Source of the DNA: Sabellastarte sp. h YS-2021
Taxonomy: Eukaryota; Annelida; Polychaeta; Sabellida; Sabellidae
Reading direction: 5' to 3'
NCBI GenBank assembly: GCA_964017235.1
Contig: OZ024929.1
Location: 165,215,609 to 165,279,608 of the forward strand
Length of the DNA: 64,000 nucleotides
The notes beneath the pieces were generated by a model, which saw only the letters and a list, made by a program, of their open reading frames with translations, ran no database searches and was not told where the DNA came from. This document shows, one piece after another, positions 29,828 through 60,617 of the stretch. Position 1 is the first letter of the stretch, and the number at the start of each line of letters is the position of its first letter. A program made the translations under genes and the position numbers.

Positions 29828-29849
29828 AATTTTATTGCGTTAATACATG

Positions 29850-41164: not shown

Positions 41165-41225
41165 GTATTAACTTATAAAAATTTAATTTACTTATTAAAT
41201 TTGCAATTTCATTGCGTTAATACAT

Positions 41226-41398
41226 CTTACCTACCAGACGATAGCTATAGCCCGGCGCCAGCCGGTCCCGCCAAACGAAAGAAAAAGACGTCCCGGGTTT
41301 CACCCCCGGAAGGACCGGCACACTACAATCCACTCGCCAGGTGGCCTAGTTCCTGCCTCACTCGCCAGAGGGACGTGACGTCATAGCATCTTTTTCGT
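41226..41398 (+). repeat. Left ITR of element B (173 bp)
   Basis: From 'cttacctaccagacgatagc' to 'catctttttcgt', the inverse of 53,082-53,254 and of the same length. It contains TGACGTCA at 41,376-41,383, a match to the CRE consensus, and is followed at once by TTTGGCGC (41,398 onward), a match to E2F sites. It probably includes the promoter. Confidence 0.9.
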
Positions 41399-41475
41399 TT
41401 GGCGCGATTTTTAAAGTTGTGGATTTTTATCTGTGAACTTTTTAGTTTTTTATTTGTGTTATATCAGTTTAATTT

Positions 41476-41940
41476 GTGTCGGAATTGTTGCCATTAGTTG
41501 ACTGTTCTATCATGGCATCTCCAGGACAGAAAAAGGGTGCGTGTGGCCATATTATGGCTTCATTTGACAAACATAGTAGGTGTGCGCGTTGTCGCGAGAA
41601 AGGACAGGGTGATGACCCTTGTGTTCAAAATCTGCAGTGTGACTTTTGCAGTGTCCTTACCCCGGAGCAAGTGCTCAAGTTAAGTACTCCTACCTATAAA
41701 CTCAGAAAGGAAAAGGCTAAAGCAAAGGAAGTGTTAGTCGATCCGTCTTCTGTGGTAGTACTTGATACCCAGCCAGAACAAGAACCTGCTGTTTCTGTTT
41801 CTTCTGCTCCGGATTTGTCCCTTCCTGTGCCTCAGTTTAAGAAAGATCTTCAAGAACTGGACGAAAAGTGGGCCACTCGTATGGCCAGGCTTGAGGCACT
41901 TATCACTTTAGGACATCGCTCCTCACCTTCTGTGCAACAA
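41476..41940 (+). pseudogene. gag of element B, 5' part
   Basis: Encodes the first ~155 residues of the Gag-like protein: a short leader, MASPGQKKG (the likely start, since E begins at the same point), a Cys/His cluster (C-G-H, C-A-R-C, C, C-D-F-C) suggestive of zinc binding, then a Lys-rich and Pro-rich stretch. At S-V-Q the frame is cut by the right end of element A, after which only four foreign codons are read. The remainder of gag is at 47,839-49,362. One extra glutamine codon (gtgcaacaaaat) differs from A at the insertion point. Confidence 0.85.
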
Positions 41941-42132
41941 AATTGCAAATTTTAATTAGTAAATTAAATTTTAATAGTTAATACCTTACCTACCAGACGA
42001 TAGCTAGAATAACTACCCAGTGGAAGGAGGGCAGCCTTCTGAGGATTGGGGAAACTCTTATATTATACCTAGGTGTGAGGTTCTAGTCCTTTAAGGAGAC
42101 ATGTTAGTCTCAAGGGTAACTAGACCCACCTG

Positions 42133-42148
42133 CCCCCCCCCCCTTTTT
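42133..42148 (-). promoter_or_regulatory. 3' purine tract of element A
   Basis: On the - strand, five A followed by 11 G, at the same place as in B, D and E. Confidence 0.4.
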
Positions 42149-42354
42149 GACTGCTCTGAGGGGAGGAAGAGAGTAAGAGTTCAAGTCAATGATTCCCACG
42201 GTTAACCTGGAAGAGTAGGGAAAGTCCTATACCCAGAGGATTACTCTGAAGTAAAAGACTTTGAGAAGCCAAGGCCTAGGCTAAAAGTGAGCCTACACCT
42301 AAAACTAACTAGTATGTACACTATATATAATTATATACAAAGAAGCTTAGGGGA

Positions 42355-45300
42355 CTAGTGGTGGATTTGTTGGGCAGCCACCACAGGACCCAAGTGAAAA
42401 AGCTCCTTATCTGCCCAGGCAACATCCTTAAGGTAAAACTGTGTAAAGGTGTTGTGGGACTTCCAGTGGCATGCTGCTAGGATCTGGTCCAGAGATATGC
42501 CACCTTGAAAGGCTTTGGAGGCCGCAAAGGCCCTAACATCATGGGCCTTAACCTGATGTAAGGTCAAGGAATCTTGGTCAGAGAGATCATAACACAACAC
42601 TACTGTTTGTTTGATCCAGGACGAGATAGTGGCAGGAGAGATGTCCTTGTTAAAACCCTGTTTGAATGAAACAAAAACTAACTCCTTTCCCGTTCTTAGG
42701 TCCTGCGTTTTGTCCAGGTAGTAGCGAAGAGCCCGAACGGGGCAAAGGGATCTGTCTTCCTTTAAAGACTTATCCAGAGTGGGGGCTAAGGCTGGAATGA
42801 CCACAGGGGCCACGCACTCTGGTCCCTCTTTTGCCAAGTGATTTTTCGCCAAGAAGCTTGGTGAAGGGTAGAGGGAAATTTTGGACCAGTCAGCTTGGTG
42901 TCTGATATTTTTGTTTAACCAAGCGTGAATCTCACTCCTGCGTTTTCCTGAAGCCAGGGCTAGGAGAAAAACAGTTTTGAAAGTAAGGTGCTTCAGAGAA
43001 GCCTTTCTGAGTGGTTCAAAAGGCGCTTTTGTAAGCTGGTGTAAAACCAGGGAGAGGTTCCAAGCAGGAACCCCCCGGCGCCCTTTGGGTCTATCTCTGT
43101 GAAAACTGTCTAACAGTCTAGTCAAATTTTCATCCTTGCCGACATTAACCGAGGTATTTCCCAGTTTGTCTGCAATGGCTGACCTGTAACCATCAATAGT
43201 GCTGGGCTGGAGATTCTTCTCCTGGAAAAGGTGCAGGAGGAAATCTGCTATTTGTTTTATAGATGGGTTCCTGAAGTCCACCTGACTTGTTTCACACCAT
43301 CTGACAAAAACGGCCCACTTCGCTTCGTAGACTGTTCTGGTTGAACGTCTTTGAGGCGCCTCAATTCTTGACGCCACTGGGCTAGAGAACCCCTGCTCCT
43401 TGATTGTCTGGGCTCTAGGAGCCAGGCATGGAGATTTAGGTTTCTCAGATCCCTGTGACGTGCCTTGTTGAAAGGTTGGGTCACTAGATCTGGGTGGTGT
43501 GGAAGACAAAGAGGAACCCTCGCAGATAGTTCCACTAGGTCCCAAAACCAAGGCATGTTGGGCCATCCCGGGGCAATCAGGATTGCTCTGCGATACCAGT
43601 GATCTGACAGCTTGCTGACCACCTTCCCCATCAGAGACACTGGGGGGAAGAGGTACATGTCCAGGTCCTCCCAGGACAATGTCAGAGCATCCACTGACCA
43701 GGCCTTTGGGTCTGGAATTGGGGACACAAATTGAACTAGCTTGCAGTTGTACCTTGTTGCAAACATGTCCACTCGGGGATAATGCCAGGTTTGACAAAGG
43801 AGGTCGAAGGTCTCTTGATGGAGGGACCACTCCGTCTGAATGACCTGCCTTTGGCGAGACAATTTGTCTGCAATTACATTCAGACGGCCTGGAATGTGTC
43901 TGGCCTTCAGTACTATTTGATTGAGGCTGCACCAACATAGGAGCCGCCAAAGAAGGGCACAGAGTGAGCCTGACCTCATACCTCCTTCCTTGTTGATGTA
44001 TGCCACAACCGTGGTGTTGTCTGTGGCAATCAGGACGACCTTTCCTTGCACTAAATGTTGGAATCTTTTTAGTGCTAACAACACGGCTTTTAGTTCTAAG
44101 AAGTTTATGTGCAACTTGCTTTCGGGCACTGACCAAGTACCGCTTGCTGTGAAGTCGCCTAAGTGAGCACCCCAGCCTTCCTTTGAGGCGTCTGTAAAGA
44201 TTTGAACTGCGTGTCGCAGGGGGTGTAAGGGCTGACCCTTTAGGACATTTTCCTCTTGGGTCCACCACTGCAGGTACTGATGGAGAGACCTCGGAATTGG
44301 GATCTCCTTTTCCAGAGATTCTGGGACTCTCCAGTGTTTCTTGAGGTGCCACTGAATAGGTCTCATGTGCAGTCTGCCTAGGGTCACCTGTTTTTCTGTC
44401 GCAGTGAGAAGACCTATAAGAGACATGAAAGTTCTCACTCGGCAAGATCTGTTCTGTAAAAGCACTGTTATTTTCTGTTGAAGGGTTTCCCAACGATTTT
44501 GAGTAGGCCTGACTACTCCGTTGAGTAGGTCGTACTGGTAGCCTACGAAGTCGAAGACTTGTTGGGGTTCCAGTTCTGATTTTTGCATGTTTACCATCCA
44601 GCCCAACTCCTGGCAGAGGGCTAGGAGGGACTGGGTTCCCTGGTGGCAAGATTCTTTGGTAGGGGCTCGAATCAACCAGTCGTCTAGGTACTGGTGGATT
44701 CTTATACCCTGTGACTGAGCCATTAACTTGACCTCTTTGACCACACCAGTGAACTCCATGGGAGCTGTTGACAGGCCAAAGGGAAGTGCCCGAAACTGGT
44801 ACGACTGGTTCTGAAAGTGGAACCTGAGGAATTTTCGGGATGTGTAGTGAATTGGGATGTGGAAGTAGGCGTCGCTGAAGTCTAGCGATGTCACCCACTC
44901 CTCTTGTTGTAGAGAGGTCCGGATTGTCTCTGGAGTCTCCATTTTGAATGTTTTTACGCATAAAAACTGATTTAGAGTACTGAGATCCAAGATTGGCCGC
45001 CACTTGTGGTTCGGCTTTGGGACAATGAACAGTCTGTTGAAAAAGGCTAGTGAGGTTTGAACCCTGACCCTCTCTACTGCCTTTTTCTCGATCAGAGCTT
45101 GTACAGCTGCTTGCAAGTGGGAGTCTCTGATGGGGTTTGCATAGCCACTTACTATCAGGGGATCCCTTACTAAGGGAGGTCTTACTTTGAAGGGAAGAAC
45201 ATAACCCTCCTTTAATATGGACACTACTTTTGGGTTTGCACCCTTGTGAGCCCATATTTCCCAAAAACTCTGAAGACGTCCCCCCACTGGTTGGACACTT

Positions 45301-45453
45301 GCAACATTGGGGACATTTGGAACATTTGGAGCAGAAACAAAGTGACCGACAAAAGAAGCACTTTTCACACACTTTATTTGACTTTTGATCTTTAATTTTG
45401 GTCTTACGTCTTTCTTTTGCGACTGCCACCTTGTTACAGTAGGTACACGACAT
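42355..45453 (-). CDS. Tyrosine recombinase frame of element A
   Basis: A frame of 1,032 codons from the first Met, and 38 more open codons upstream to the gag TGA with which it is in phase. Residues 1-75 are extremely Cys-rich (pairs such as CTYC, CEKC, CSKC, CPQC, C-C-K-C), suggesting zinc binding. About residues 75-660 overlap RT/RNase H in another frame and may have no separate fold. The recombinase domain occupies about residues 670-1032: SGKRRSE with Arg838, H971-x-x-R974, Trp997 in C-H-W and the nucleophile Tyr1007, a complete tetrad. It would integrate the circular DNA by strand exchange at a short core. Expression could be by read-through of the gag stop, by an internal start or from a spliced RNA. 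Confidence 0.88.
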   Translation of the reverse strand: MSCTYCNKVAVAKERRKTKIKDQKSNKVCEKCFFCRSLCFCSKCSKCPQCCKCPTSGGTSSEFLGNMGSQGCKPKSSVHIKGGLCSSLQSKTSLSKGSPDSKWLCKPHQRLPLASSCTSSDREKGSREGQGSNLTSLFQQTVHCPKAEPQVAANLGSQYSKSVFMRKNIQNGDSRDNPDLSTTRGVGDIARLQRRLLPHPNSLHIPKIPQVPLSEPVVPVSGTSLWPVNSSHGVHWCGQRGQVNGSVTGYKNPPVPRRLVDSSPYQRILPPGNPVPPSPLPGVGLDGKHAKIRTGTPTSLRLRRLPVRPTQRSSQAYSKSLGNPSTENNSAFTEQILPSENFHVSYRSSHCDRKTGDPRQTAHETYSVAPQETLESPRISGKGDPNSEVSPSVPAVVDPRGKCPKGSALTPPATRSSNLYRRLKGRLGCSLRRLHSKRYLVSARKQVAHKLLRTKSRVVSTKKIPTFSARKGRPDCHRQHHGCGIHQQGRRYEVRLTLCPSLAAPMLVQPQSNSTEGQTHSRPSECNCRQIVSPKAGHSDGVVPPSRDLRPPLSNLALSPSGHVCNKVQLQASSICVPNSRPKGLVSGCSDIVLGGPGHVPLPPSVSDGEGGQQAVRSLVSQSNPDCPGMAQHALVLGPSGTICEGSSLSSTPPRSSDPTFQQGTSQGSEKPKSPCLAPRAQTIKEQGFSSPVASRIEAPQRRSTRTVYEAKWAVFVRWCETSQVDFRNPSIKQIADFLLHLFQEKNLQPSTIDGYRSAIADKLGNTSVNVGKDENLTRLLDSFHRDRPKGRRGVPAWNLSLVLHQLTKAPFEPLRKASLKHLTFKTVFLLALASGKRRSEIHAWLNKNIRHQADWSKISLYPSPSFLAKNHLAKEGPECVAPVVIPALAPTLDKSLKEDRSLCPVRALRYYLDKTQDLRTGKELVFVSFKQGFNKDISPATISSWIKQTVVLCYDLSDQDSLTLHQVKAHDVRAFAASKAFQGGISLDQILAACHWKSHNTFTQFYLKDVAWADKELFHLGPVVAAQQIHH

Positions 45454-45659
45454 ACAACATGATAAGAAACATTTGTTGGAACAGATACAAAAGAGTTTCT
45501 TGTTATGACACTTTGTACAGAACTGACTGGCCGGGCCACCGGCACCGGACTTGACTTGCAGTAATTGTCATTTATACTGTGTCTTCTCATGAGCCATCTT
45601 GGTACCACGTCCGGGTTGACCACCCCGGCCTCTGCCCCGGCCTCTATTGCGGGAACCAA
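43257..45659 (-). CDS. Reverse transcriptase/RNase H of element A
   Basis: An 800-codon frame overlapping the end of gag by 92 nt in the +1 phase. RT spans about residues 200-430: PKPNHKWRPILDLS, LDFSDAYF (catalytic Asp260), ALPFGLSTAPMEF and YLDDWL (324-329). RNase H spans about 485-600: FTDAS (D490), LELKAV (E522), TDNTT (D547) and ADKLS (D598), all four acidic residues present. A further conserved block around 630-705 (DMFATR, then ILIAPGWPNMPWFWDL) stands where some DIRS1 elements carry a methyltransferase-like domain; I cannot confirm that activity. The enzyme would copy the element RNA into DNA without an integrase or protease. The first Met lies inside gag, so expression by frameshifting or by internal initiation is possible. 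Confidence 0.92.
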   Translation of the reverse strand: MVPAIEAGAEAGVVNPDVVPRWLMRRHSINDNYCKSSPVPVARPVSSVQSVITRNSFVSVPTNVSYHVVCRVPTVTRWQSQKKDVRPKLKIKSQIKCVKSASFVGHFVSAPNVPNVPNVASVQPVGGRLQSFWEIWAHKGANPKVVSILKEGYVLPFKVRPPLVRDPLIVSGYANPIRDSHLQAAVQALIEKKAVERVRVQTSLAFFNRLFIVPKPNHKWRPILDLSTLNQFLCVKTFKMETPETIRTSLQQEEWVTSLDFSDAYFHIPIHYTSRKFLRFHFQNQSYQFRALPFGLSTAPMEFTGVVKEVKLMAQSQGIRIHQYLDDWLIRAPTKESCHQGTQSLLALCQELGWMVNMQKSELEPQQVFDFVGYQYDLLNGVVRPTQNRWETLQQKITVLLQNRSCRVRTFMSLIGLLTATEKQVTLGRLHMRPIQWHLKKHWRVPESLEKEIPIPRSLHQYLQWWTQEENVLKGQPLHPLRHAVQIFTDASKEGWGAHLGDFTASGTWSVPESKLHINFLELKAVLLALKRFQHLVQGKVVLIATDNTTVVAYINKEGGMRSGSLCALLWRLLCWCSLNQIVLKARHIPGRLNVIADKLSRQRQVIQTEWSLHQETFDLLCQTWHYPRVDMFATRYNCKLVQFVSPIPDPKAWSVDALTLSWEDLDMYLFPPVSLMGKVVSKLSDHWYRRAILIAPGWPNMPWFWDLVELSARVPLCLPHHPDLVTQPFNKARHRDLRNLNLHAWLLEPRQSRSRGSLAQWRQELRRLKDVQPEQSTKRSGPFLSDGVKQVRWTSGTHL
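45562..45570 (-). promoter_or_regulatory. Leaky-stop context TGA-CAA-TTA at the end of gag (A)
   Basis: The gag stop TGA is followed by CAA-TTA, which fits the STOP-CAR-YYA read-through context known from tobamoviruses. The frame beyond stays open for 1,070 codons into the YR protein. The same context occurs in B, E and G. Confidence 0.6.
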
Positions 45660-47568
45660 ACGCTTTCCAAGCTGGTAGTTCCTTTCCGGCTTGAGAAGTT
45701 GTTTTAGCAGTGTCTTGAGGTTTCCAACCAGTACTGTAGGGTTGGTATCTCTGTTTTCTGCCTCTACCGGCGAACCCCCCGCGGCCCGGGCCGGGCTGGG
45801 AAGTACGTCGGGAAGCTTCTAATTGGTTTATTTCATCCTCAGCTTTTCTAATAGCAGCATCTGGAAATAGCCCATATCCATTCAGGGGGCAATTTCTCAA
45901 GGAATTGAAAGTATCTGGTTTAATCCCCGGTTTCACAGCTTCCAAGTATGAATCCCTACGGAGTAGGGTCAAATTTGCCATCTGCACAAATGTAAAGTCT
46001 GCCAAATGTTGTAGAGATTTACCCATGGCGAAACTGACATTCTGGTTAAATGAGGATAAATATAAAAGTTCATCCAATGCACCTTGAGCTTTGACAGAGG
46101 ACTTGCCTTTCTTAAGTTCACTTTGTAAAATATGCAATTGTTCTTGGAAGGCATCCTGTATTTTGGTAATACAGCGATTAAACCCCGCTGACTGGTTGCA
46201 AATATATGAAGACTCTTTTGCTGCTTTCTCCCACTTACGCATAGTGTCTTGTGATAGTGGGCGGGATGGAGGCTGAGGAGATGCAGAAGATATGGTTGAA
46301 ATCCTGGGGAATGAACTATTTATCTTCGCCGCATCATTTGGCCAAGAATTCACTGATTTACCCGGCCTAGTTGGATCTGTAGGCTCCGCCGGGTGTATCC
46401 CATACCATCTGCTCTGGGATTTGGGGGGTCTGAGGAATTGGTCCACATGCAGGCCACCTGGATCACTAGATTTTGAAGGATAACCTTCTATCAGTACAAG
46501 GTTTAGAGTCTCTAGTTTTCGGCACAACCAATCTTCCGGAGGAAGATCCACAGAAATCTTGCCCACAGGTTGAGAACGGTGACCTGCCCAAGGATTATCA
46601 GTGCGGGATTGAGGAGAAAACTCCAGGTCAGGAATGTGTGTCCATCCCATGAACGCGCGGACGCCTCTCACAGTCTCGCGGTAATTTTGATCTTCACTGA
46701 GGACCCGGTCCGGGTCTGAGGTTTCTAAGTCTGGGGATTCCTCTGCGTCAGATAACTCACCCTCTTCAAATGTTTCCTGAGGATTGACATCGCGGAAGGT
46801 GACCGGCCCGGAGCCGGAAGAAGGTTGTTGAAATGCAGCTTGAGAGGAAGCAGACATAGCAGCTGACGACACAGTAGCCACCGGAGCAGGGTGTTTAAAC
46901 ATAGGTTCTGCTTCCGGGTAGAGGTTTTGAAATGGAGATTGTCTGTCAGCAATTGAAAAATCCTGATCTCTAGGCTCATCCGGGCCAACAGCCGGACCGG
47001 CTGGGCCGGAAGAAGCCGAAGTAGAGACAAAAAAGGGTGTCTGGGAAAGAGCACCTGCTGGAGCAGCATGAGAGACCGGTACTTTGACCGGAGAAAATGT
47101 TGGATTTTGTACAGAAGGTGAGGAGCGATGTCCTAAAGTGATAAGCGCCTCAAGCCTGGCCATACGAGTGGCCCACTTTTCGTCCAGTTCCTGAAGATCT
47201 TTCTTAAACTGAGGCACAGGAAGGGACAAATCCGGAGCAGAAGAAACAGATACAGCAGGTTCTTGTTCTGGCTGGGCATCAAGTACTACCACAGAAGACG
47301 GATCGACTAACACTTCCTTTGCTTTAGCCTTTTCCTTTCTGAGTTTATAGGTAGGAGTACTTAACTTGAGCACTTGCTCCGGGGTAAGGACACTGCAAAA
47401 GTCACACTGCAGATTTTGAACACAAGGGTCATCACCCTGTCCTTTCTCGCGACAACGCGCACACCTACTATGTTTGTCAAATGAAGCCATAATATGGCCA
47501 CACGCACCCTTTTTCTGTCCTGGAGATGCCATGATAGAACAGTTAACTAATGGCAACACTTCCGACAC
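45568..47568 (-). CDS. Gag-like protein of element A
   Basis: A 666-codon frame; the likely start is the internal Met13 (MASPGQKKG), because the diverged element E begins there. The Cys/His cluster at about residues 23-58 (C-G-H, CARC, C, CDFC) may bind zinc. The middle is acidic and Pro/Ser-rich; a conserved central block includes D-N-P-W-A-G-H-R-S-Q-P, DWLCRKL, SRWYGIHP and KWEKAAKESS. The carboxy end is Gly/Arg-rich (GRGRGRGG), typical of nucleic-acid binding. It presumably packages the RNA. It ends in a TGA that separates it from the in-phase YR frame. It is four residues longer than the copy in B in the RG repeat. Confidence 0.85.
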   Translation of the reverse strand: MSEVLPLVNCSIMASPGQKKGACGHIMASFDKHSRCARCREKGQGDDPCVQNLQCDFCSVLTPEQVLKLSTPTYKLRKEKAKAKEVLVDPSSVVVLDAQPEQEPAVSVSSAPDLSLPVPQFKKDLQELDEKWATRMARLEALITLGHRSSPSVQNPTFSPVKVPVSHAAPAGALSQTPFFVSTSASSGPAGPAVGPDEPRDQDFSIADRQSPFQNLYPEAEPMFKHPAPVATVSSAAMSASSQAAFQQPSSGSGPVTFRDVNPQETFEEGELSDAEESPDLETSDPDRVLSEDQNYRETVRGVRAFMGWTHIPDLEFSPQSRTDNPWAGHRSQPVGKISVDLPPEDWLCRKLETLNLVLIEGYPSKSSDPGGLHVDQFLRPPKSQSRWYGIHPAEPTDPTRPGKSVNSWPNDAAKINSSFPRISTISSASPQPPSRPLSQDTMRKWEKAAKESSYICNQSAGFNRCITKIQDAFQEQLHILQSELKKGKSSVKAQGALDELLYLSSFNQNVSFAMGKSLQHLADFTFVQMANLTLLRRDSYLEAVKPGIKPDTFNSLRNCPLNGYGLFPDAAIRKAEDEINQLEASRRTSQPGPGRGGFAGRGRKQRYQPYSTGWKPQDTAKTTSQAGKELPAWKAFGSRNRGRGRGRGGQPGRGTKMAHEKTQYK

Positions 47569-47645
47569 AAATTAAACAGATATAACACAATATAAAAACT
47601 AAAGAGTTCACAGATAAAAATCCACAACTTTAAATATCGCGCCAA

Positions 47646-47818
47646 ACGAAAAAGATGCTATGACGTCACGTCCCTCTGGCGAGTGAGGCAGGAACTAGGC
47701 CACCTGGCGAGTGGATTGTAGTGTGCCGGTCCTGCCGGGGGTGAAACCCGGGACGTCTTTTTCTTTCGTTTGGCGGGACCGGCTGGCGCCGGGCTATAGC
47801 TATCGTCTGGTAGGTAAG
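47646..47818 (-). repeat. Left ITR of element A (173 bp)
   Basis: Same sequence and length as the ITRs of B, with TGACGTCA and, just inside, TTTGGCGC (read on the - strand). The outer left tail (aatgaaat...) ends at 47,838 against the gag of B. Confidence 0.9.
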
Positions 47819-47838
47819 ATGTATTAACGCAATGAAAT

Positions 47839-49362
47839 CCAACATTTTCTCCGGTCAAAGTACCGGTCTCTCATGCTGCTCCAGCAGGTGCTCTTTCCCA
47901 GACACCCTTTTTTGTCTCTACTTCGGCTTCTTCCGGCCCAGCCGGCCCGGCTGTTGGCCCGGATGAGCCTAGAGATCAGGATGTTTCCTTTGCTGACAGA
48001 CAATCTCCACTTCAAAACCTCTACCCGGAAGCAGAACCTATGTTTAAACACCCTGCTCCGGTGGCTACTGTGTCGTCAGCTGCTATGTCTGCTTCCTCTC
48101 AATCTGCATTTCAACAACCTTCTTCCGGCTCCGGGCCGGTCACCTTCCGCGATGTCAATCCTCAGGAAACATTTGAAGAGGGTGAGTTATCTGACGCAGA
48201 GGAATCCCCAGACTTGGAAACCTCAGACCCGGACCGGGTCCTCAGTGAAGATCAAAATTACCGCGAGACTGTGAGAGGCGTCCGCGCGTTCATGGGATGG
48301 ACACACATTCCTGACCTGGAGTTTTCTCCGCAATCCCGCACTGATAATCCTTGGGCAGGTCACCGTTCTCAGCCTGTGGGCAAGATTTCTGTGGATCTTC
48401 CACCGGAAGATTGGTTGTGCCGAAAACTAGAAACTCTAAACCTTGTACTGATAGAAGGATATCCTTCAAAATCTAGTGATCCAGGTGGCCTGCATGTGGA
48501 CCAATTCCTCAGACCCCCCAAATCCCAGAGCAGATGGTATGGGATACACCCGGCGGAGCCTACAGATCCAACTAGGCCAGGTAAATCGGTGAATTCTTGG
48601 CCAAATGATGCGGCGAAGATCAATAGTTCATTCCCCAGGATTTCAACCATATCTTCTGCATCTCCTCAGCCTCCATCCCGCCCACTATCACAAGACACTA
48701 TGTGTAAGTGGGAGAAAGCAGCAAAAGAGTCTTCATATATTTGCAACCAGTCAGCGGGGTTTAATCGCTGTATTACCAAAATACAGGATGCCTTCCAAGA
48801 ACAATTGCATATTTTACAAAGTGAACTTAAGAAAGGCAAGTCCTCTGTCAAAGCTCAAGGTGCATTGGATGAACTTTTATATTTATCCTCATTTAACCAG
48901 AATGTCAGTTTCGCCATGGGTAAATCTCTACAACATTTGGCAGACTTTACATTTGTGCAGATGGCAAATTTGACCCTACTCCGTAGGGATTCATACTTGG
49001 AAGCTGTGAAACCGGGGATTAAACCAGATACTTTCAATTCCTTGAGAAATTGCCCCCTGAATGGATATGGGTTATTTCCAGATGCTGCTATTAGAAAAGC
49101 TGAGGATGAAATAAACCAATTAGAAGCTTCCCGACGTACTTCCCAGCCCGGCCCGGGCCGCGGGGGGTTCGCCGGTAGAGGCAGAAAACAGAGATACCAA
49201 CCCTACAGTACTGGTTGGAAACCTCAAGACACTGCTAAAACAACTTCTCAAGCCGGAAAGGAACTACCAGCTTGGAAAGCGTTTGGTTCCCGCAATAGAG
49301 GCCGGGGTGGTCAACCCGGACGTGGTACCAAGATGGCTCATGAGAAGACACAGTATAAATGA
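47839..49362 (+). pseudogene. gag of element B, 3' part
   Basis: Continues gag of B in phase from P-T-F-S-P to the stop TGA at 49,360-49,362 (508 codons including the stop). The sequence closely follows A, including DNPWAGHRSQPVGK, DWLCRKL, SRWYGIHP and the Gly/Arg-rich end. It is cut from its first ~155 codons by element A, so no complete Gag can be made from this copy. Confidence 0.88.
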
Positions 49363-51673
49363 CAATTACTGCAAGTCAAGTCCGGTGCCGGTGGCCCGGC
49401 CAGTCAGTTCTGTGAAAAGTGTCGTAACAAGAAACTCTTTTGTATCTGTTCCAACAAATGTTTCTTATCATGTTGTATGTCGTGTACCTACTGTAACAAG
49501 GTGGCAGTCACAAAAGAAAGACGTAAGGCCAAAATCAAAGATCAAAAGTCAAATAAAGTGTGTGAAAAGTGCTTCTTTTGTCGGTCACTTTGTTTCTGCT
49601 CCAAATGTTCCAAATGTCCCCAATGTTGCAAGTGTCCAACCAGTGGGGGGACGTCTTCAGAGTTTTTGGGAAATATGGGCTCACAAGGGTGCAAACCCAA
49701 AAGTAGTGTCCATATTAAAGGAGGGTTATGTTCTTCCCTTCAAAGTAAGACCTCCCTTAGTAAGGGATCCCCTGATAGTAAGTGGCTATGCAAACCCCAT
49801 CAGAGACTCCCACTTGCAAGCAGCTGTACAAGCTCTGATCGAGAAAAAGGCAGTACAGAGGGTCAGGGTTCAAACCTCACTAGCCTTTTTCAACAGACTG
49901 TTCATTGTCCCAAAGCCGAACCACAAGTGGCGGCCAATCTTGGATCTCAGTACTCTAAATCAGTTTTTATGCGTAAAAACATTCAAAATGGAGACTCCAG
50001 AGACAATCCGGACCTCTCTACAACAAGAGGAGTAGGTGACATCGCTAGACTTCAGCGACGCCTACTTCCACATCCCAATTCACTACACATCCCGAAAATT
50101 CCTCAGGTTCCACTTTCAGAACCAGTCGTACCAGTTTCGGGCACTTCCCTTTGGCCTGTCAACAGCTCCCATGGAGTTCACTGGTGTGGTCAAAGAGGTC
50201 AAGTTAATGGCTCAGTCACAGGGTATAAGAATCCACCAGTACCTAGACGACTGGTTGATTCGAGCCCCTACCAAAGAATCTTGCCACCAGGGAACCCAGT
50301 CCCTCCTAGCCCTTTGCCAGGAGTTGGGCTGGATGGTAAACATGCAAAAATCAGAACTGGAACCCCAACAAGTCTTCGACTTCGTAGGCTACCAGTACGA
50401 CCTACTCAACGGAGTAGTCAGGCCTACTCAAAACCGTTGGGAAGCCCTTCAACAAAAAATAACAGTGCTTTTACAGAACAGATCTTGCCGAGTGAGAACT
50501 TTCATGTCTCTTATAGGTCTTCTCACTGCGACAGAAAAACAGGTGACCCTAGGCAGACTGCACATGAGACCTATTCAGTGGCACCTCAAGAAACACTGGA
50601 GAGTCCCAGAATCTCTGGAAAAGGAGATCCCAATTCCGAGGTCTCTCCATCAGTACCTGCAGTGGTGGACCCAAGAGGAAAATGTCCTAAAGGGTCAGCC
50701 CTTACACCCCCTGCGACACGCAGTTCAAATCTTTACAGACGCCTCAAAAGAAGGCTGGGGTGCTCACTTAGGCGACTTCACAGCAAGCGGTACTTGGTCA
50801 GTGCCCGAAAGCAAGTTGCACATAAACTTCTTAGAACTAAAAGCCGTGTTGTTAGCACTAAAAAGATTCCAACATTTAGTGCAAGGAAAGGTCGTCCTGA
50901 TTGCCACAGACAACACTACGGTTGTAGCATACATCAACAAGGAAGGAGGTATGAGGTCAGGCTCACTCTGTGCCCTTCTTTGGCAGCTCCTATGTTGGTG
51001 CAGCCTCAATCAAATAGTACTGAAGGCCAGACACATTCCAGGCCGTCTGAATGTAATTGCAGACAAATTGTCTCGCCAAAGGCAGGTCATTCAGACGGAG
51101 TGGTCCCTCCATCAAGAGACCTTCGACCTCCTTTGTCAAACCTGGCATTATCCCCGAGTGGACATGTTTGCAACAAGGTACAACTGCAAGCTAGTTCAAT
51201 TTGTGTCCCCAATTCCAGACCCAAAGGCCTGGTCAGTGGATGCTCTGACATTGTCCTGGGAGGACCTGGACATGTACCTCTTCCCCCCAGTGTCTCTGAT
51301 GGGGAAGGTGGTCAGCAAGCCGTCAGATCACTGGTATCGCAGAGCAATCCTGATTGCCCCGGGATGGCCCAACATGCCTTGGTTTTGGGACCTAGTGGAG
51401 CTATCTGCGAGGGTTCCTCTTTGTCTTCCACACCACCCAGATCTAGTGACCCAACCTTTCAACAAGGCACGTCACAGGGATCTGACAAACCTAAATCTCC
51501 ATGCCTGGCTCCTAGAGCCCAGACAATCAAGGAGCAGGGGTTCTCTAGCCCAGTGGCGTCAAGAATTGAGGCGCCTCAAAGACGTTCAACCAGAACAGTC
51601 TACGAAGCGAAGTGGGCCGTTTTTGTCAGATGGTGCGAAACAAGTCAGGTGGACTTCAGGAACCCATCTATAA
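49283..51673 (+). pseudogene. RT/RNase H of element B, one nonsense codon
   Basis: Almost identical to the enzyme of A, but the tryptophan just before the first catalytic aspartate block (Q-Q-E-E-W-V-T-S in A) is TAG at 50,033-50,035. The frame before it encodes 250 residues and the remainder 545. YLDDWL and all RNase H acidic residues are kept. The same base change is silent in the overlapping YR frame (valine in both). The lesion alone should abolish RT unless it is suppressed. Confidence 0.9.
49360..49368 (+). promoter_or_regulatory. Leaky-stop context TGA-CAA-TTA at the end of gag (B)
   Basis: Same arrangement as in A: TGA, CAA, TTA, then an open in-phase frame (38 codons to the first Met at 49,477) into the Cys-rich segment and YR. 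Confidence 0.6.
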
Positions 51674-52575
51674 AACAAATAGCAGATTTCCTCCTGCACC
51701 TTTTCCAGGAGAAAAATCTCCAGCCCAGCACTATTGAAGGTTACAGGTCAGCCATTGCAGACAAACTGGGAAATACCTCGATTAATGTCAGCAAGGATGA
51801 CAATTTGACTAGACTGTTAGACAGTTTTCACAGGGATAGACCCAAAGGACGCAGGGGGGTTCCTGCTTGGAACCTCTCCCTAGTTTTACACCAGCTTACA
51901 AAAGCACCTTTTGAACCCCTCAGAAAGGCTTCTCTGAAACACCTTACTTTCAAAACTGTTTTTCTCCTAGCCCTGGCTTCAGGAAAACGCAGAAGTGAGA
52001 TACACGCTTGGTTAAACAAAAATATCAGACACCAAGCTGATTGGTCCAAAGTTTCCCTCTACCCATCACCAAGTTTCTTGGCGAAAAATCACTTGGCAAA
52101 AGAGGGACCAGAGTGCGTGGCTCCTGTGGTCATCCCGGCCTTAGCCCCCACTCTGGATAAGTCTTTAAAGGAAGACAGATCCCTTTGCCCCGTTCGGGCT
52201 CTTCGATACTACCTGGACAAAACGCAGGATCTAAGAACGGGAAAGGAGTTAGTTTTCGTTTCATTCAAACGAGGGTTTGACAGGGACATTTCTCCTGCCA
52301 CTATCTCGTCCTGGATCAAACAAACAGTAGTGTTGTGTTATGATCTCTCTGACCAGGAGTCCTTGACCTTACATCAGGTCAAGGCCCATGACGTTAGGGC
52401 CTTTGCGGCCTCCAAAGCTTTTCAAGGTGGCATATCTCTGGACCAGATTCTAGCAGCATGCCACTGGAAGTCCCACAACACCTTTACACAGTTTTACCTT
52501 AAGGATGTTGCCTGGGCAGATAAGGAGCTTTTTCACTTGGGTCCTGTGGTGGCGGCCCAGCAGATCCACCACTAG
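49477..52575 (+). CDS. Tyrosine recombinase frame of element B
   Basis: 1,032 codons, the same length as in A, with the same Cys-rich start and complete tetrad: SGKRRSE, A-H-D-V-R, C-H-W and the tyrosine of FTQFYLKD. The differences from A are scattered substitutions (for example KRGFDRD for KQGFNKD). The frame stays open through the whole RT overlap. It is in phase with the gag TGA at 49,360. This copy could still supply recombinase. Confidence 0.88.
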   Translation: MSCTYCNKVAVTKERRKAKIKDQKSNKVCEKCFFCRSLCFCSKCSKCPQCCKCPTSGGTSSEFLGNMGSQGCKPKSSVHIKGGLCSSLQSKTSLSKGSPDSKWLCKPHQRLPLASSCTSSDREKGSTEGQGSNLTSLFQQTVHCPKAEPQVAANLGSQYSKSVFMRKNIQNGDSRDNPDLSTTRGVGDIARLQRRLLPHPNSLHIPKIPQVPLSEPVVPVSGTSLWPVNSSHGVHWCGQRGQVNGSVTGYKNPPVPRRLVDSSPYQRILPPGNPVPPSPLPGVGLDGKHAKIRTGTPTSLRLRRLPVRPTQRSSQAYSKPLGSPSTKNNSAFTEQILPSENFHVSYRSSHCDRKTGDPRQTAHETYSVAPQETLESPRISGKGDPNSEVSPSVPAVVDPRGKCPKGSALTPPATRSSNLYRRLKRRLGCSLRRLHSKRYLVSARKQVAHKLLRTKSRVVSTKKIPTFSARKGRPDCHRQHYGCSIHQQGRRYEVRLTLCPSLAAPMLVQPQSNSTEGQTHSRPSECNCRQIVSPKAGHSDGVVPPSRDLRPPLSNLALSPSGHVCNKVQLQASSICVPNSRPKGLVSGCSDIVLGGPGHVPLPPSVSDGEGGQQAVRSLVSQSNPDCPGMAQHALVLGPSGAICEGSSLSSTPPRSSDPTFQQGTSQGSDKPKSPCLAPRAQTIKEQGFSSPVASRIEAPQRRSTRTVYEAKWAVFVRWCETSQVDFRNPSIKQIADFLLHLFQEKNLQPSTIEGYRSAIADKLGNTSINVSKDDNLTRLLDSFHRDRPKGRRGVPAWNLSLVLHQLTKAPFEPLRKASLKHLTFKTVFLLALASGKRRSEIHAWLNKNIRHQADWSKVSLYPSPSFLAKNHLAKEGPECVAPVVIPALAPTLDKSLKEDRSLCPVRALRYYLDKTQDLRTGKELVFVSFKRGFDRDISPATISSWIKQTVVLCYDLSDQESLTLHQVKAHDVRAFAASKAFQGGISLDQILAACHWKSHNTFTQFYLKDVAWADKELFHLGPVVAAQQIHH

Positions 52576-52781
52576 TCCCCTAAGCTTCTTTGTATATAAT
52601 TATATATAGTGTACATTCTAGTTAGTTTTAGGTGCAGGCTCACTTTTGGCCTATGCCTTGGCTTCTCAAAGTTTTTTACTTCAGAATAATTCTCTGGGTA
52701 TAGGACTTTCCCTACTCTTCCAGGTTAACCATGGGAATCATGGACTTGAACTCTTGCTCTCTTCCTCCCCTCAGAGCAGTC

Positions 52782-52802
52782 AAAAAAAGGGGGGGGGGGG
52801 GG
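52782..52802 (+). promoter_or_regulatory. 3' purine tract of element B
   Basis: Seven A followed by 14 G between the YR stop and the ICR, equivalent to the tracts of A, D and E. Confidence 0.4.
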
Positions 52803-52929
52803 TGCAGGTAGGTCTAGATATCCTTGAGACTAACATGTCTCCTCAAAGGACTAGAACCTCACACCTAAGTATAATAAGAGTTCTTTCCAATCCTCAAAAG
52901 GCTGCCCTCCTTCCACTGGGTAGTTATTC

Positions 52930-53028
52930 TAGCTATCGTCTGGTAGGTAAGATGTATTAACGCAATGAAATTGCAAATTTTAATTAGTAAATTAAATTTT
53001 TATTAGTTAATACCTTACCTACCAGACG
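52930..53028 (+). repeat. Internal complementary region (ICR) of element B
   Basis: Contains the complement of the left tail (atgtattaacgcaatgaaat) fused to the complement of the right tail (gcaaattttaattagtaaat...gttaatac), between the inverted arms 'cgtctggtaggtaag' and 'cttacctaccagacg'. It is therefore the complement of the joined ends of a circular copy, diagnostic of DIRS1-like elements. Confidence 0.9.
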
Positions 53029-53081
53029 GGAAATTCCCACCCGGCCTTCCCCGCTTCCAGCCTCATCATTCAATCTTAGGG

Positions 53082-53254
53082 ACGAAAAAGATGCTATGAC
53101 GTCACGTCCCTCTGGCGAGTGAGGCAGGAACTAGGCCACCTGGCGAGTGGATTGTAGTGTGCCGGTCCTGCCGGGGGTGAAACCCGGGACGTCTTTTTCT
53201 TTCGTTTGGCGGGACCGGCTGGCGCCGGGCTATAGCTATCGTCTGGTAGGTAAG
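53082..53254 (+). repeat. Right ITR of element B (173 bp)
   Basis: The inverse of 41,226-41,398. The right tail (gtattaactaataaaaattt...) follows and ends aaatttgc at 53,295, after which the satellite resumes. Confidence 0.9.
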
Positions 53255-53295
53255 GTATTAACTAATAAAAATTTAATTTACTAATTAAAATTTGC

Positions 53296-53524
53296 AAATT
53301 TCCTTCTATCTCCTTAACTGTGTGAGATAGAGCGATTTCGTCGAAATTTTCAACCCACAGGGTATCTAAGGAGTGTACTCTTTGCAATTTTCAAAAAATT
53401 TTCCCCTCCCCAAAAATGGCGGCCATTTTGAATTTTCAAATTTTTGCCAAAAATAGAAAAACAGGAATTTGCTTCTATCTTCTTAACCATGCGAGATCGA
53501 GTGATTTCGTCAAAATTTTCAACC
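53296..53524 (+). repeat. Satellite mini-array, right half
   Basis: Starts 'aaatttccttctatctcc', exactly the part missing from the monomer broken at 29,827, and continues through one full monomer and part of the terminal diverged monomer, as at the end of the main array. Confidence 0.9.
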
Positions 53525-53725
53525 CAACCAATGCAAAAAGGCATGAAGCTGAAATCATTTACATCTACACTAATAAATATTTAAGCATCATTGATCTATT
53601 TTACAAATGAAACAGGGTCTTGTAAGACTACTGTACAATTTGGGCAAGGTTCATTGGGTGGACATTATACTGCTATCCTGTTTCTATTCGCATCTACTAT
53701 CAACAGGGCGTCCTATTTTTAGTTT
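53525..53725. repeat. Satellite right flank, second copy
   Basis: Matches 16,931-17,145, from 'aacccaaccaatgcaaaaag' to 'gggcgtcctattt'. Confidence 0.85.
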
Positions 53726-54019
53726 TTTATGAATTTTTAAAATAATTTTTGATGCATTAAAATTCACAATTTTATGCAACAAATCACTTGTTACTTGATA
53801 AGTATTCCATTTATAGCATTTTGTTAAAATATGTTGCTACTTTTTCCATTGCTACAATATGGTAACTTGGGAGTCTATCCCAATATCTAAGTAATACCTC
53901 CTTTCTGACTTTTAAGTAATCTCCATGAGTAAAGTTGCTTGTAACTTGATAACAATTGCAAAAAGAATATTTTGTTGAAATATGTTGTTCACCTACTTTT
54001 GGGTCAGCTATAATTTAGT
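53726..54019. other. AT-rich spacer with a diverged duplication
   Basis: No gene seen. 'ttgttacttgataag...' near 53,788 and 'cttgtaacttgataac...' near 53,939, each followed by 'attttgtt(a/g)aaatatgttg', show a ~150-bp diverged duplication. Confidence 0.5.
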
Positions 54020-55300
54020 AAAATTGCAGACCTGTAACTCGTTCCATAGCTGAGCAATAGCCACTTCGAGGTTATCACTGTTGGACCGCCTGTAGTGGAG
54101 GTTTGACTCTGAAAGTTGTAACTGTTTTTCAGAATGGACACTACTCTGGGACTTGCACCCTTGGAGGCCCATATTTGCCAGAAAGCTTTAATACGTCCCC
54201 TCACAAGTAGATTTTTGACAACATTGAGGACACTTTCTACAGGAGGAGCAGAACACTAGTTATTTACAAAAGAAGCCTGCTTTACAGGCTTTATTCTAGT
54301 CTTGTTCAATGTATGGTGTCTTTTGCAGTGCCCTCAATAAATCACAGTAAGTACATGAATTACAACATACATGTACATGCAATTTACAATGTTTGATATG
54401 TTCCACCAAATCATGAGTCTTAACACTTTCAGAACACTGATCAACAACACTTGTATTCAAAAAGTCAGTACACTCTGCAGTCTTAGTTGGAAATTGAACT
54501 GAGACTGTAATTGTCATTTATTTTGTTTGCCTCTACCTCTGAGGGAGCCACCACCACCACACTTTGGAGTACCAGATCTCCTGCCCTGGTGTAGTTGGTT
54601 CTGTTGCTGAAACTGTGCCATGTAGCCATGTCCTGGTTTTGGTCCTGAGCCTGTGTTGACTTATGTTTGCCATCCTTGTGTCTGGACAAGTTGGTCTTAT
54701 GTGTACGCACCTGTCAGAACCCAAACTGGGTAGGGGAGATGGGGATTGGCTTCAGATTTTGTAATATCCTCCTAAGCCTTGGCTATAATCGCATTAAGGA
54801 AGACGGCTATTCCTGAGTGAACTCAAAGTATCTGGCTTGACACTGGGCTTAGGTATTAGGAGCCCCGATGCAGGAGGGTCATGTTGACTTTCCAAACAAT
54901 AAATTTACATTCTGCTGGAAAGAGGTCAAGTCTTTCAGTTCATTGAGAGCTTTTTCAGCCTTGTGTGAGGACTTTCCTTTGCCCAACTCTCCAAATATGA
55001 CTCTCGTCTTGGACTTTATCCTGGAGTTTATTAACACATGTTAAAAGTTGCAGCCTGATTGCACACCACTGTTGACTCCTTGAGAAATTTCTCTCACTTT
55101 TGCATAATCTCTTGTGAGATAGGTCTACAAATAGAGGAGATAACAGCTAATGGCTTGGAGATCCTCGTGAAAGCACTATTTAGCTGGGAGGCATCACTGG
55201 ACCATTTCTTGACAGACTTTCCTGGTGAAGTCACTTATGGGTCAGGGCCAGGGTACATTGCATACCATCTTGCTTGAAATTTAGGAGGTTTCACAAACTT
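54020..55300 (-). pseudogene. DIRS element G: gag 3' part and RT start (remnant)
   Basis: Read on the - strand, the gag segment KFVKPPKF...RWYAMYP follows the F-L-R-P-P-K-S...R-W-Y-G-I-H-P block of A, then W-E-K and C-N-Q-A-A. Gag closes in AAA-TGA-CAA-TTA at 54,508-54,516. After it come CTYC-type residues of the Cys-rich segment (near 54,350) and the first part of RT (FWQIWASKGASPRVVSIL, near 54,160). Similarity ends near 54,020. Stops and frameshifts are present. The other half of G lies at 62,828-64,000; element E interrupts it. Confidence 0.8.
54508..54516 (-). promoter_or_regulatory. TGA-CAA-TTA context at the end of gag (G)
   Basis: Although G is old and degenerate, the gag stop and its six following bases are the same as in A and B. 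Confidence 0.5.
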
Positions 55301-55340
55301 GCAAATTTAATAAGTAAATTAAATTTTTATAAGTTAATAC

Positions 55341-55513
55341 CCTATCCAATGGACAATTGCTTTACCGGTCGGCACGACCGGTCCTGCCAAGCGCCAGAAA
55401 AAGACGTCCTGTATAGAATACCGGCAGGACCGGTCAGGAGAGTGCATTCGCCAGGTGGCGCATCGTACTTCCTCTTCCTGTCTAGACATCGTGACGTCAT
55501 AGCATCTTTTTTG
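55341..55513 (-). repeat. Right ITR of element E
   Basis: From 'cctatccaatggacaattgc' to 'gcatcttttttgt', inverse to 62,639-62,806. Contains 'cgtgacgtcatagc'. The right tail lies outside it at 55,301-55,340. Confidence 0.88.
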
Positions 55514-55574
55514 TGTCTAGTCCTAGTAAGACCCCTAGTAAGCTGATAGCGGGGCCGGTTGGGTGGGCCTTGCC

Positions 55575-55670
55575 TGTCCATTGGATAGGGTATTAACTTA
55601 TAAAAATTTAATTTACTTATTAAATTTGCAATTTTATTGCGTTAATACATCCTATCCAATGGACAATTGC
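55575..55670 (-). repeat. Internal complementary region (ICR) of element E
   Basis: 'tgtccattggatagggtatt...aaatttgcaattttattgcg...cctatccaatggaca': right tail joined to left tail, between inverted arms. In the - orientation of E it is complementary to the joined ends. Confidence 0.88.
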
Positions 55671-55798
55671 TGAATAACTACCGCTTGGTAGGCGGGTAAG
55701 CAGCTAGGGACTTCTGTGAACTCATAACAAAACAAAAAAGTACAGGCCCATTTGACCTAGGGTCAGAGAACCCTGACAGGTCAAGGTCGGCCACCAAC

Positions 55799-57079
55799 TC
55801 ACCGGTTAACCTGGGAGTCTACCGACGTTGCCCCCCCCCCCCCTTTTCTTTCCTTCCAGAGTTGGATTGAGAAGGGAAAGATAGAGAGAGAGGGGCTGAG
55901 TTCAGTCCCAGAAGAATAAACTTCCCAAGGGAAGCAAGTCACAGTTTTTTTTTGTTTTTTTTTATATATAATATGTACATTCAACATATTTACATTATTT
56001 ACATCACCCTTGAGTGACCTATCCAGAGATGGTGCCAGGGCTGGAATGACCACTGGAGCCACACTATCCAGACCTTCCTTGGCCAGCTGGTTCTTGGATA
56101 GGAAGCTGGGTGAAGGGTACAAAGACACCTTAGACCAGTCTGACTGGTGTCTGATGTTCTTATGTAACCAAGCATGGATCTCACTCCTGCGTTTACCTGA
56201 GCCTAAGGCCAGCAAGAAAACAGTCTTGAAAGTTATATGTTTCAAGGAGGCCTCTTTTAGGGGTTCAAAGGGAGCCTTTGTGAGCTGGTGTAGAACCAGG
56301 GAAAGATTCCAGGAGGGGATGTCCCTCCTGCCCCTAGGCCTGTCTCTATGGAAACTATCCAGGAGACGAGTGAGATTCTCATCTTTGCTGACATTAATGG
56401 TGGAATTGCCCAGTTTGTCAGCAATGGCTGATCTGTAGCCATCAATAGTGCCTGGTTGTAACTTCTTGTCCTGAAACAAGTGCAGGAGGAAGTCAGCAAT
56501 GGCTTTCAGAGGTGGTGCCCTGAAGTCCACCTGATTACTGAGGCACCACTTTGTAAAGATGGACCACTTTGCCTCATAGACAGATCTGGTTGATCCTCTT
56601 TGAGGAGCCTCAATTCGTGCTGCCACTGCCTCAGAGAAGCCTTGCTCCTGGATTGCTGAGGCTCTAGGAGCCAGGCATGTAGGTTCAGATTCGCCAGGTT
56701 CCTGTGAAGGACCTGGTTGAATGGCTGAGACACTAGATTGGGTATGCTGGGCAGGCACAGTGGGATCTGGCTTGACATTGCTACCAGGTCCCAAAACCAG
56801 GGCATGTTGGGCCACCCTGGAGCAATCAGAATTATTCTGTTGCAGGGGTAGTCCTGGAGCTTCTCCACCACTTTGCCCAAGATGGCTGCCGGTGGGAAGG
56901 CGTATGGGTCCAGGTCCTCCCAGGAGAGGCTTAGTGCATCCACTGCCCAAGCCTGGGGTTCTGGAACCGGTGACACAAACTGTGGCAGTTTGTTGTTGAA
57001 CCTGGTGGCAAACAGGTCCACCTGTGGCTGGTGCCACCTTGAGCATACAGCTTGGAACACTGCTGTATGAAGTGACCAC
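55799..57079 (-). pseudogene. Tyrosine recombinase of element E, carboxy end deleted
   Basis: The frame (426 codons) follows the YR of A from the region around the APRAS/EAP block, with K-W-S-I-F-T-K-W and TVFLLALGSGKRRSEIHAW (first catalytic Arg kept), down to A-P-S-L-D-R-S-L-K-G. There, about 56,012, it jumps into 3' UTR sequence, so roughly 115 codons with H-x-x-R, the Trp and the nucleophile Tyr are missing. The last ~60 residues of the frame are UTR read-through. This copy cannot make an active recombinase. Confidence 0.85.
55831..55846 (-). promoter_or_regulatory. 3' purine tract of element E
   Basis: On the - strand, four A then 13 G, preceded by further purines (ggaaggaaag). Confidence 0.4.
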
Positions 57080-58332: not shown

Positions 58333-58379
58333 AGGCGGGTTGCGTGTAACCAACCCGCCTATTAGATTGATGTGTCCGT

Positions 58380-59560: not shown

Positions 59561-59619
59561 CCTGTACATATGGTAAATAATACTATGACTTACATTTATT
59601 TTAATAAATTATCTTTTGT

Positions 59620-60608: not shown

Positions 60609-60617
60609 TGATTGTCA
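60609..60617 (-). promoter_or_regulatory. Leaky-stop context TGA-CAA-TCA at the end of gag (E)
   Basis: TGA followed by CAA-TCA, again fitting CAR-YYA. The third codon differs from A and B by a pyrimidine change that keeps the consensus. Confidence 0.55.

What the first reader, a model, noticed from the sequence alone, without database searches (positions are those of the whole stretch)
45562..45570. Conserved TGA-CAA-TYA after gag couples Gag in phase to a Cys-rich/recombinase frame
In A and B the YR frame is in exact phase with gag; only TGA separates them, and 38 open codons lead to the first Met. The stop is followed by CAA-TTA in A (45,562-45,570), B (49,360-49,368) and G (54,508-54,516), and by CAA-TCA in E (60,609-60,617). 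All fit STOP-CAR-YYA, a read-through context known from tobamoviruses. RT/RNase H lies in the +1 frame overlapping the last 92 nt of gag. One gag could thus give two extended products: Gag-YR by read-through and Gag-RT by frameshifting. I know of no description of this for DIRS elements.
Basis: partly seen in the sequence, partly recalled or inferred. Interest (0 to 1): 0.8.

Follow-up and report, generated by a model that had tools for sequence, protein, structure and literature searches.

The report
Leaky stop joins Gag to recombinase
In this family of DIRS jumping genes the Gag gene ends in a stop signal that is kept in a known leaky form, which most likely lets some ribosomes carry on and make Gag fused to a cysteine-rich piece and the recombinase enzyme.

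Summary
All four matches to TGACAATYA in the window are the four gag ends. In A and B the frame after the TGA is open for 1,070 codons, in phase with gag; its first Met is codon 39. A and B are near-identical copies, so the window gives three lineages, not four.

I tested the interpretation beyond the window. Of 304 proteins collected, 135 cross the site in the +1 (RT) frame and read ND[NS][YHQ] there, which is AA-TGA-CAR-YYA, in 27 clusters. Variation falls where CAR-YYA allows it (N/S = CAA/CAG; Y/H/Q = YYA); neighbours vary freely. Two single copies deviate. Counted by reach alone, 35 of 37 long +1 ORFs have it. Frame 0 has 0 stops across 676 RT codons, against a mean of 25 in synonymous shuffles. 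A conserved Cys-rich domain follows the stop in frame 0; in A it starts before the first Met.

Best reading: UGA-CAR-YYA read-through making Gag-Cys-YR (0.85). How RT is expressed stays open. Read-through was not measured, and other families' DNA was not seen.

The parts
45562..45570 (-). Element A: gag stop TGA plus CAA-TTA (UGA-CAR-YYA)
49360..49368 (+). Element B: gag stop TGA plus CAA-TTA
54508..54516 (-). Element G (degraded): gag stop TGA plus CAA-TTA
60609..60617 (-). Element E: gag stop TGA plus CAA-TCA
45568..47571 (-). A: gag frame, stop to stop, 667 aa; first ATG at codon 14 (MASPGQKK)
42355..45567 (-). A: frame 0 after the gag stop, 1,070 codons: Cys-rich domain, RT-overlap stretch, tyrosine recombinase
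45301..45519 (-). A: Cys-rich domain in frame 0 (about residues 17-89); C41, C44, C67, C70, C73, C79, C82, C89 invariant in 22 aligned sequences (A and 21 relatives), C37 and C38 nearly so
   Evidence: coordinates computed from residue numbers
42427..43344 (-). A: recombinase region (Phage_int_SAM_4 and Phage_integrase profiles, residues 742-1047 of frame 0)
   Evidence: below Pfam gathering scores
43257..45818 (-). A: RT/RNase H frame (+1 relative to gag), 853 aa stop to stop
47836..49362 (+). B: gag, 3' part (from about residue 156); the 5' part lies at 41,473-41,940
49363..52575 (+). B: frame 0 after the gag stop, 1,070 codons
60615..62540 (-). E: gag (one internal stop: two open stretches, 62,552-62,115 and 62,114-60,615)
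41206..41406 (+). B: left inverted terminal repeat, right limit approximate
52937..53028 (+). B: internal complementary region: reverse complement of B's first 35 bases (52,937-52,971) running into the complement of its right end
53082..53297 (+). B: right inverted terminal repeat, left limit approximate

Best explanation
The gag stop of these DIRS1-like elements is a programmed leaky stop of the tobamovirus type (UGA-CAR-YYA). Most ribosomes end there and make Gag. A minority decode UGA as an amino acid and continue in the same frame through a Cys-rich, probably metal-binding, domain, then through a long stretch that overlaps RT and is kept open but is little conserved as protein, and end with the tyrosine recombinase. 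The product is Gag-Cys-YR (about 1,738 residues in A counted from the gag frame's start), which would bring the recombinase into Gag particles at low dose. Shown: the motif and its conservation (DNA in three lineages, inferred from protein in the rest), the phase, the open frame, the conserved Cys domain. Inferred: that ribosomes read through, at what rate, that the Cys domain binds metal, and packaging.
For: (1) All 4 window TGACAATYA sites are gag ends, in 3 lineages whose flanks match at 16-35%. (2) In the +1 frame the site reads ND[NS][YHQ]: 135 of the 304 proteins collected (NDNY 99, NDNH 16, NDNQ 11, NDSY 9), 27 clusters at 60% identity, with 2 single-copy deviants found by a 3-of-4 search. 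(3) With a pattern-independent denominator, +1 ORFs reaching >=160 residues upstream of the RT anchor: 35 of 37; >=115: 67 of 71; >=100: 125 of 139; the pattern occurs 0 times in 148,751 residues downstream. (4) Per column in 27 representatives (chosen by the pattern, so read with point 3): N 27/27, D 27/27, N or S 27/27, Y/H/Q 27/27; next best are I at -1 (20/27) and C at +4 (17/27), the rest 3 to 14 of 22-27. N/S = AAY/AGY (CAA/CAG) and Y/H/Q = YAN (YYA) is what CAR-YYA allows. (5) Phase with the Cys frame in other families: a +1 shadow of CxxCxxC in 128 of 132 site-bearing proteins, control windows 7 of 3,644. (6) Frame 0 over A's 676 RT codons: 0 stops; 5,000 synonymous shuffles mean 25.1, minimum 12; the third frame has 56 (mean 41.6); B (0 against 25.5) and degraded F (5 against 22.4) agree. 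(7) The first frame-0 Met is not fixed: of 93 proteins whose match to A begins in their first 40 residues, 14 start inside the Cys domain, 11 just after it and 19 further on; C37 and C38, nearly invariant, precede A's first Met. (8) CARYYA after UGA gave about 15% read-through in an OPRL1 context in mammalian cells, all six bases mattering (PMC4132726, passages read).
Against: No read-through was measured and no RNA or peptide was seen. DNA was seen for 3 lineages only; for the others the TGA and the C of CAR are inferred from N and D codons, whose third base the protein does not show. The collected proteins share contig lengths across families (e.g. 4,744,045), so they may come from one or a few genomes. 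Frame 0 is broken in E and G. P0248 has NDYY (CTA or TTA instead of CAA). A context with two or more changed residues would have been missed by the 3-of-4 search and shows only in the reach-based count. 49 of the 93 frame-0 starts map to A's codon 40 or earlier, so an ATG start keeping most of the Cys domain is possible in many copies. Tca2, with a UGA between gag and pol, failed such a test in yeast (PMC2194720, abstract read).
Confidence: 0.85

Rival explanations
1. The conserved site is a +1 frameshift site: the ribosome pauses at UGA-C and the tRNA on the last gag codon (AAA in the three lineages with DNA) slips one base into RT, making Gag-RT. The Cys/YR frame would then be expressed otherwise.
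For: RT is exactly +1 of gag. UGA followed by C is the stop context of RF2 (CUU_UGA_C) and S. cerevisiae antizyme (GCG_UGA_C) +1 frameshifting (PMC5009743, passages read). In E no +1 ATG lies in the 14 open codons upstream of the stop, which speaks against a simple ATG start for RT there.
Against: It does not explain why AR-YYA after the C is kept, nor the frame-0 Cys domain. +1 openness over the Cys region is not more than chance in A (34% of shuffles). I recall no case with AAA as slippery P-site codon before UGA; I did not search for one beyond a term search in PMC5009743 (no match for AAA-UGA).
Confidence: 0.08
2. YR is made by initiation at a frame-0 ATG downstream of the stop (reinitiation, leaky scanning or a separate mRNA); the TGA context is incidental.
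For: A frame-0 ATG exists in A and B at codon 39, and 49 of the 93 proteins counted as frame-0 starts map at or before A's codon 40.
Against: Start positions move through and beyond the Cys domain between families, e.g. P0054 against P0076. Nearly invariant C37 and C38 lie upstream of A's first Met; in E all the open Cys stretch precedes its first frame-0 Met at codon 72. It gives no reason for the kept CAR-YYA.
Confidence: 0.05
3. The four residues ND[NS][YHQ] are conserved as a peptide of the RT frame, and the leaky-stop motif is a by-product.
For: They are read in the RT ORF in all 135 proteins.
Against: Nothing next to them is conserved at that level. Y, H and Q are chemically unlike but share YAN codons; N and S share ARY. 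The site sits exactly on the gag stop in the 3 lineages with DNA.
Confidence: 0.02

Closest known systems
Type I (tobamovirus-type) STOP-CAR-YYA read-through
   Same: Stop followed by CAR-YYA; UGA and UAG work about equally with this motif (PMC4132726, passages). No 3' RNA structure beyond shuffles here: z -0.31 (A), 0.33 (B), -0.82 (E), 0.45 (G); that this type needs none is recalled.
   Different: Known mainly from plant RNA viruses and some cellular genes; here in a DIRS retrotransposon, joining Gag to a recombinase rather than a replicase.
Gammaretroviral gag-pol read-through (recalled)
   Same: Leaky gag stop in phase with the downstream enzyme frame.
   Different: There UAG plus a 3' pseudoknot joins Gag to protease-RT-integrase. 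Here UGA plus CAR-YYA joins Gag to a Cys domain and YR, while RT lies in another frame.
Tca2 of Candida albicans (Ty1/copia type, recalled)
   Same: UGA between gag and pol in one RNA (PMC2194720, abstract).
   Different: Junction sequence did not direct read-through in S. cerevisiae; the abstract names a potential 3' pseudoknot, not CAR-YYA.
DIRS1-like elements with long ORF overlap
   Same: gag, YR and RT/RH ORFs, long YR/RT overlap, ITRs and ICR (PMC3266345, passages).
   Different: The passages I read say nothing about how the second and third ORFs are translated, nor about a conserved gag stop context.

Membership tests
DIRS1-like retrotransposons | Reverse transcriptase and RNase H | tested here: met
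   RVT_1 E 4e-22 (79.4 bits, cut-off 29.6) and RT_RNaseH 31.2 bits (cut-off 24.8)
DIRS1-like retrotransposons | Tyrosine recombinase ORF | tested here: met
   Phage_integrase 19 bits, E 0.0013, below the cut-off of 27.1 (likewise below cut-off in 5 relatives); GKRRSE, HDVR and FYLKD invariant or nearly so in the alignment; reading them as the catalytic set is recalled
[quoted passage not shown]
   Seen in B; A lacks the ICR and most of the right repeat
DIRS1-like retrotransposons | Methyltransferase domain after RNase H | tested here: inconclusive
   Only a weak PCIF1_WW hit, E 0.015, below cut-off
DIRS1-like retrotransposons | No target-site duplication | tested here: inconclusive
   A-in-B junction looked at by eye; boundary ambiguous by a few bases
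Type I STOP-CAR-YYA read-through | Stop immediately followed by CAR-YYA | tested here: met
   DNA in 3 lineages; inferred from the +1 frame in 27 clusters
Type I STOP-CAR-YYA read-through | In-phase downstream coding extension under constraint | tested here: met
   Conserved Cys domain and 0 stops over 676 RT codons
Type I STOP-CAR-YYA read-through | Measured read-through above control | not testable with these tools
   needs a reporter assay
Gammaretroviral-type read-through | Stable 3' RNA structure after the stop | tested here: not met
   150-nt folds around the stop no better than shuffles in A, B, E, G; the fold tool is not expected to model pseudoknots, so one is not excluded
Selenocysteine UGA | SECIS element | tested here: not met
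   No SECIS family among the 6 Rfam matches with E<=1 in 41,000-64,000; rest of the window not searched
+1 frameshift gag-RT | Conserved shift site and +1 frame open beyond chance | tested here: inconclusive
   +1 open over the Cys region in A, but so are 34% of shuffles; no site identified

The most novel reading that the evidence does not exclude
One leaky codon works as a three-way switch: at the conserved AAA-UGA-C most ribosomes stop (Gag), some read UGA through in frame 0 (Gag-Cys-YR), and some slip +1 into RT (Gag-RT), so that Gag, recombinase and polymerase doses are all set at a single stop codon, with some 600 to 700 codons coded twice downstream.
Probability: 0.2. Interest if true: 0.88.

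Novelty: new variant of a known kind. Interest (0 to 1): 0.74.

Why it matters
How DIRS elements express their second and third ORFs is not explained in the passages read here. A conserved UGA-CAR-YYA would answer it for the recombinase, show that a plant-virus-type recoding signal is used throughout a group of retrotransposons, and explain why the YR frame stays open through the whole RT gene. It predicts a testable ratio of Gag to Gag-YR, and points to a Cys-rich domain, without a Pfam match in the six YR-frame proteins scanned, part of which in A lies before any frame-0 Met and so would be reached only by reading through.

Tried and rejected
Relatives in viral contigs (two scans: 7 and 25 pattern matches) and genome contigs (55 pattern matches): no relative was confirmed, so no outside DNA. 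Structure: AlphaFold2 gave mean pLDDT 44.5 for the Cys domain and 33.2 for the whole of frame 0; both useless, no fold search made. PDB by sequence: no match for the 125-residue Cys stretch at E<=1. Rfam: 6 matches with E<=1, all below their gathering scores. 3' stimulator: folds no better than shuffles.

Considered and rejected: termination-reinitiation at the ATG inside AATGAC; that third frame is open for only 21, 17, 72 and 4 codons in A, B, G and E. Chance: the count in the window alone is weak (10 of 100 shuffles reach 4), so the case rests on position and on the wider family. My first test of the Cys shadow used a wrongly spaced pattern and gave 0 of 132; the corrected pattern gave 128 of 132. 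The 14 misses of the >=100 denominator: P0232 and P0248 are the deviants; P0141 is a gag-deletion chimera without the site; P0181 and P0224 begin like frame-0 proteins; P0186, P0219, P0196, P0216, P0221, P0235, P0250, P0251 and P0263 appear, by comparison with relatives (by eye), to start just downstream of the site, P0251 least surely. Of the 120 proteins, 7 did not map on A and 20 had a match beginning beyond residue 40; these were left out of the first-Met count of 93, which still holds one protein, P0100, that by eye begins in the RT frame.

Full report
What is there. The window holds several DIRS1-like elements. A (minus strand) has a 667-codon gag frame (45,568-47,571) ending in TGA. Directly after it, in the same phase, is a 1,070-codon frame (42,355-45,567) with a Cys-rich start and a tyrosine recombinase at its end; RT/RNase H is in the +1 frame (43,257-45,818). 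B (plus strand) is 97.7% identical to A. G and E are degraded copies of other lineages. The four gag ends carry the only exact TGACAATYA sites in the window. A, B, G and E read ATAAA-TGA-CAA-TTA, or TCA in E, with flanks matching at 16-35%. The first Met in frame 0 of A and B is codon 39. [quoted passage not shown]

Independence. A and B count once. The three lineages with DNA are A/B, G and E.

Beyond the window. No DNA of relatives could be reached (genome search did not complete). Three protein searches gave 304 proteins in all: the best 120 of 284, of 988 and of 1,732, with overlaps. The +1 frame crosses the gag stop, so its residues report the bases there: AA|TGA|CAR|YYA reads as N-D-[N/S]-[Y/H/Q]. 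135 proteins show this (99 NDNY, 16 NDNH, 11 NDNQ, 9 NDSY), in 27 clusters at 60% identity over the next 80 residues. Two single copies deviate: P0232 with IDNY (still compatible with TGA-CAA-TTA) and P0248 with NDYY. Because those were found by the pattern, I also counted by reach alone. Of +1 ORFs that extend at least 160 residues upstream of the RT start, 35 of 37 have it, the others being P0232 and a gag-deletion chimera; at least 115, 67 of 71; at least 100, 125 of 139 (the misses are accounted for under Tried and rejected). The same pattern does not occur in 148,751 residues downstream. Column by column in 27 representatives, chosen by the pattern, only these four positions are fixed; the one before is I in 20, the one after C in 17, the rest 3 to 14 of 22-27. 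Apart from the two deviants, the residues seen are those that CAR and YYA permit. That points to a nucleotide constraint rather than a peptide one.

Frame 0. The Cys-rich domain that follows the stop is conserved in 22 aligned sequences, A and 21 relatives (C41, C44, C67, C70, C73, C79, C82 and C89 invariant in A's numbering), and nearly invariant C37 and C38 lie upstream of A's first Met. In E the first frame-0 Met is codon 72, after the whole open Cys stretch. Of the 120 listed proteins, 113 map on A; in 20 the match begins beyond residue 40. In the other 93 the first Met maps to codon 40 or earlier in 49 (by extrapolation of the local alignment, so values before codon 1 count here), inside the Cys domain in 14, just after it in 11, and further on in 19. 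Between the Cys domain and YR, frame 0 overlaps RT and is little conserved, yet it holds no stop in A: 0 against a mean of 25.1 and a minimum of 12 in 5,000 shuffles that keep the RT protein. B gives 0 against 25.5, and the degraded copy F gives 5 against 22.4. The simplest reason is that ribosomes must pass it on the way to YR. In other families the site is in phase with the Cys frame: the +1 shadow of CxxCxxC is found in 128 of 132 site-bearing proteins, against 7 of 3,644 control windows.

Mechanism. UGA-CAR-YYA is the tobamovirus-type read-through context. PMC4132726 (passages) reports that CARYYA with UGA gives about 15% in an OPRL1 context in mammalian cells, that all six bases appear to matter, and that UGA and UAG are alike. 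No 3' structure beyond shuffles is seen. I conclude that Gag-Cys-YR is made by read-through. Shown: motif, conservation, phase, open frame. Inferred: the event itself, its rate, metal binding, and packaging of YR with Gag.

What is not settled. RT is +1 of gag. In E no +1 ATG lies in the 14 open codons upstream of the stop, so RT may come from a +1 shift at or near the UGA, or from a shift after read-through near the end of the Cys domain; A's +1 openness over the Cys region does not decide, since 34% of shuffles are open too. UGA-C is also the context of two known +1 shifts (PMC5009743, passages). All proteins come from unnamed 'ena' contigs, and contig lengths recur across families (for instance 4,744,045 for P0022, P0092 and P0217), so they may come from few genomes. 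The host was not identified.

Literature. Seven searches listed no paper that I could see to be about read-through in DIRS elements; I judged by titles, counts and abstract starts. I read passages of PMC3266345, PMC9210276, PMC5633606, PMC5941688, PMC2685390, PMC6681497, PMC4132726 and PMC5009743, and the abstract of PMC2194720. Long YR/RT overlap is known (half of 28 elements, PMC3266345). Reviews on YR elements that are not in this library were not seen, so an earlier description there is not excluded.

Verdict. It is a new variant of a known kind: known read-through signal, known element class, a combination I did not find described.

Noticed in passing
41206-53297: Element A sits inverted inside B's gag: B's 5' part is 41,206-41,937 and the rest starts near 47,836; the joined flanks match A's uninterrupted gag (by eye).
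   Followed up: partly
53500-63053: E and F look like two halves of one element (RT residues 148-248 at 60,423-60,106, then 245-853 at 58,332-56,509), split by about 1.8 kb with a 168-bp tandem repeat. This element in turn appears inserted in G's gag, whose residues 297-359 lie at 63,053-62,864 and 376 onward at 55,306. If so, two DIRS-into-DIRS-gag insertions in one window.
   Followed up: partly
41938-42030: A's 3' end lacks the internal complementary region and most of the right terminal repeat, as if lost between two copies of CGTCTGGTAGGTAAG.
   Followed up: no
50033-50035: B's RT frame has a TAG that A lacks (RT open for 224 codons past the gag stop in B, 770 in A).
   Followed up: no
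45571-45575: Conservation reaches upstream of the stop: ATAAA before TGA in the 3 DNA lineages, and I before NDN in 20 of 27 clusters. Not part of CAR-YYA; unexplained.
   Followed up: partly
P0248: The one deviant that loses CAA could read UGA-CUA, close to another known read-through context (UGA-CUAG, PMC4132726, passages).
   Followed up: no
1-16928: A satellite array of about 169-bp units fills the first 16.9 kb; three more units lie at 29,320-29,832, and a similar stretch at 53,295-53,526 borders element B.
   Followed up: no
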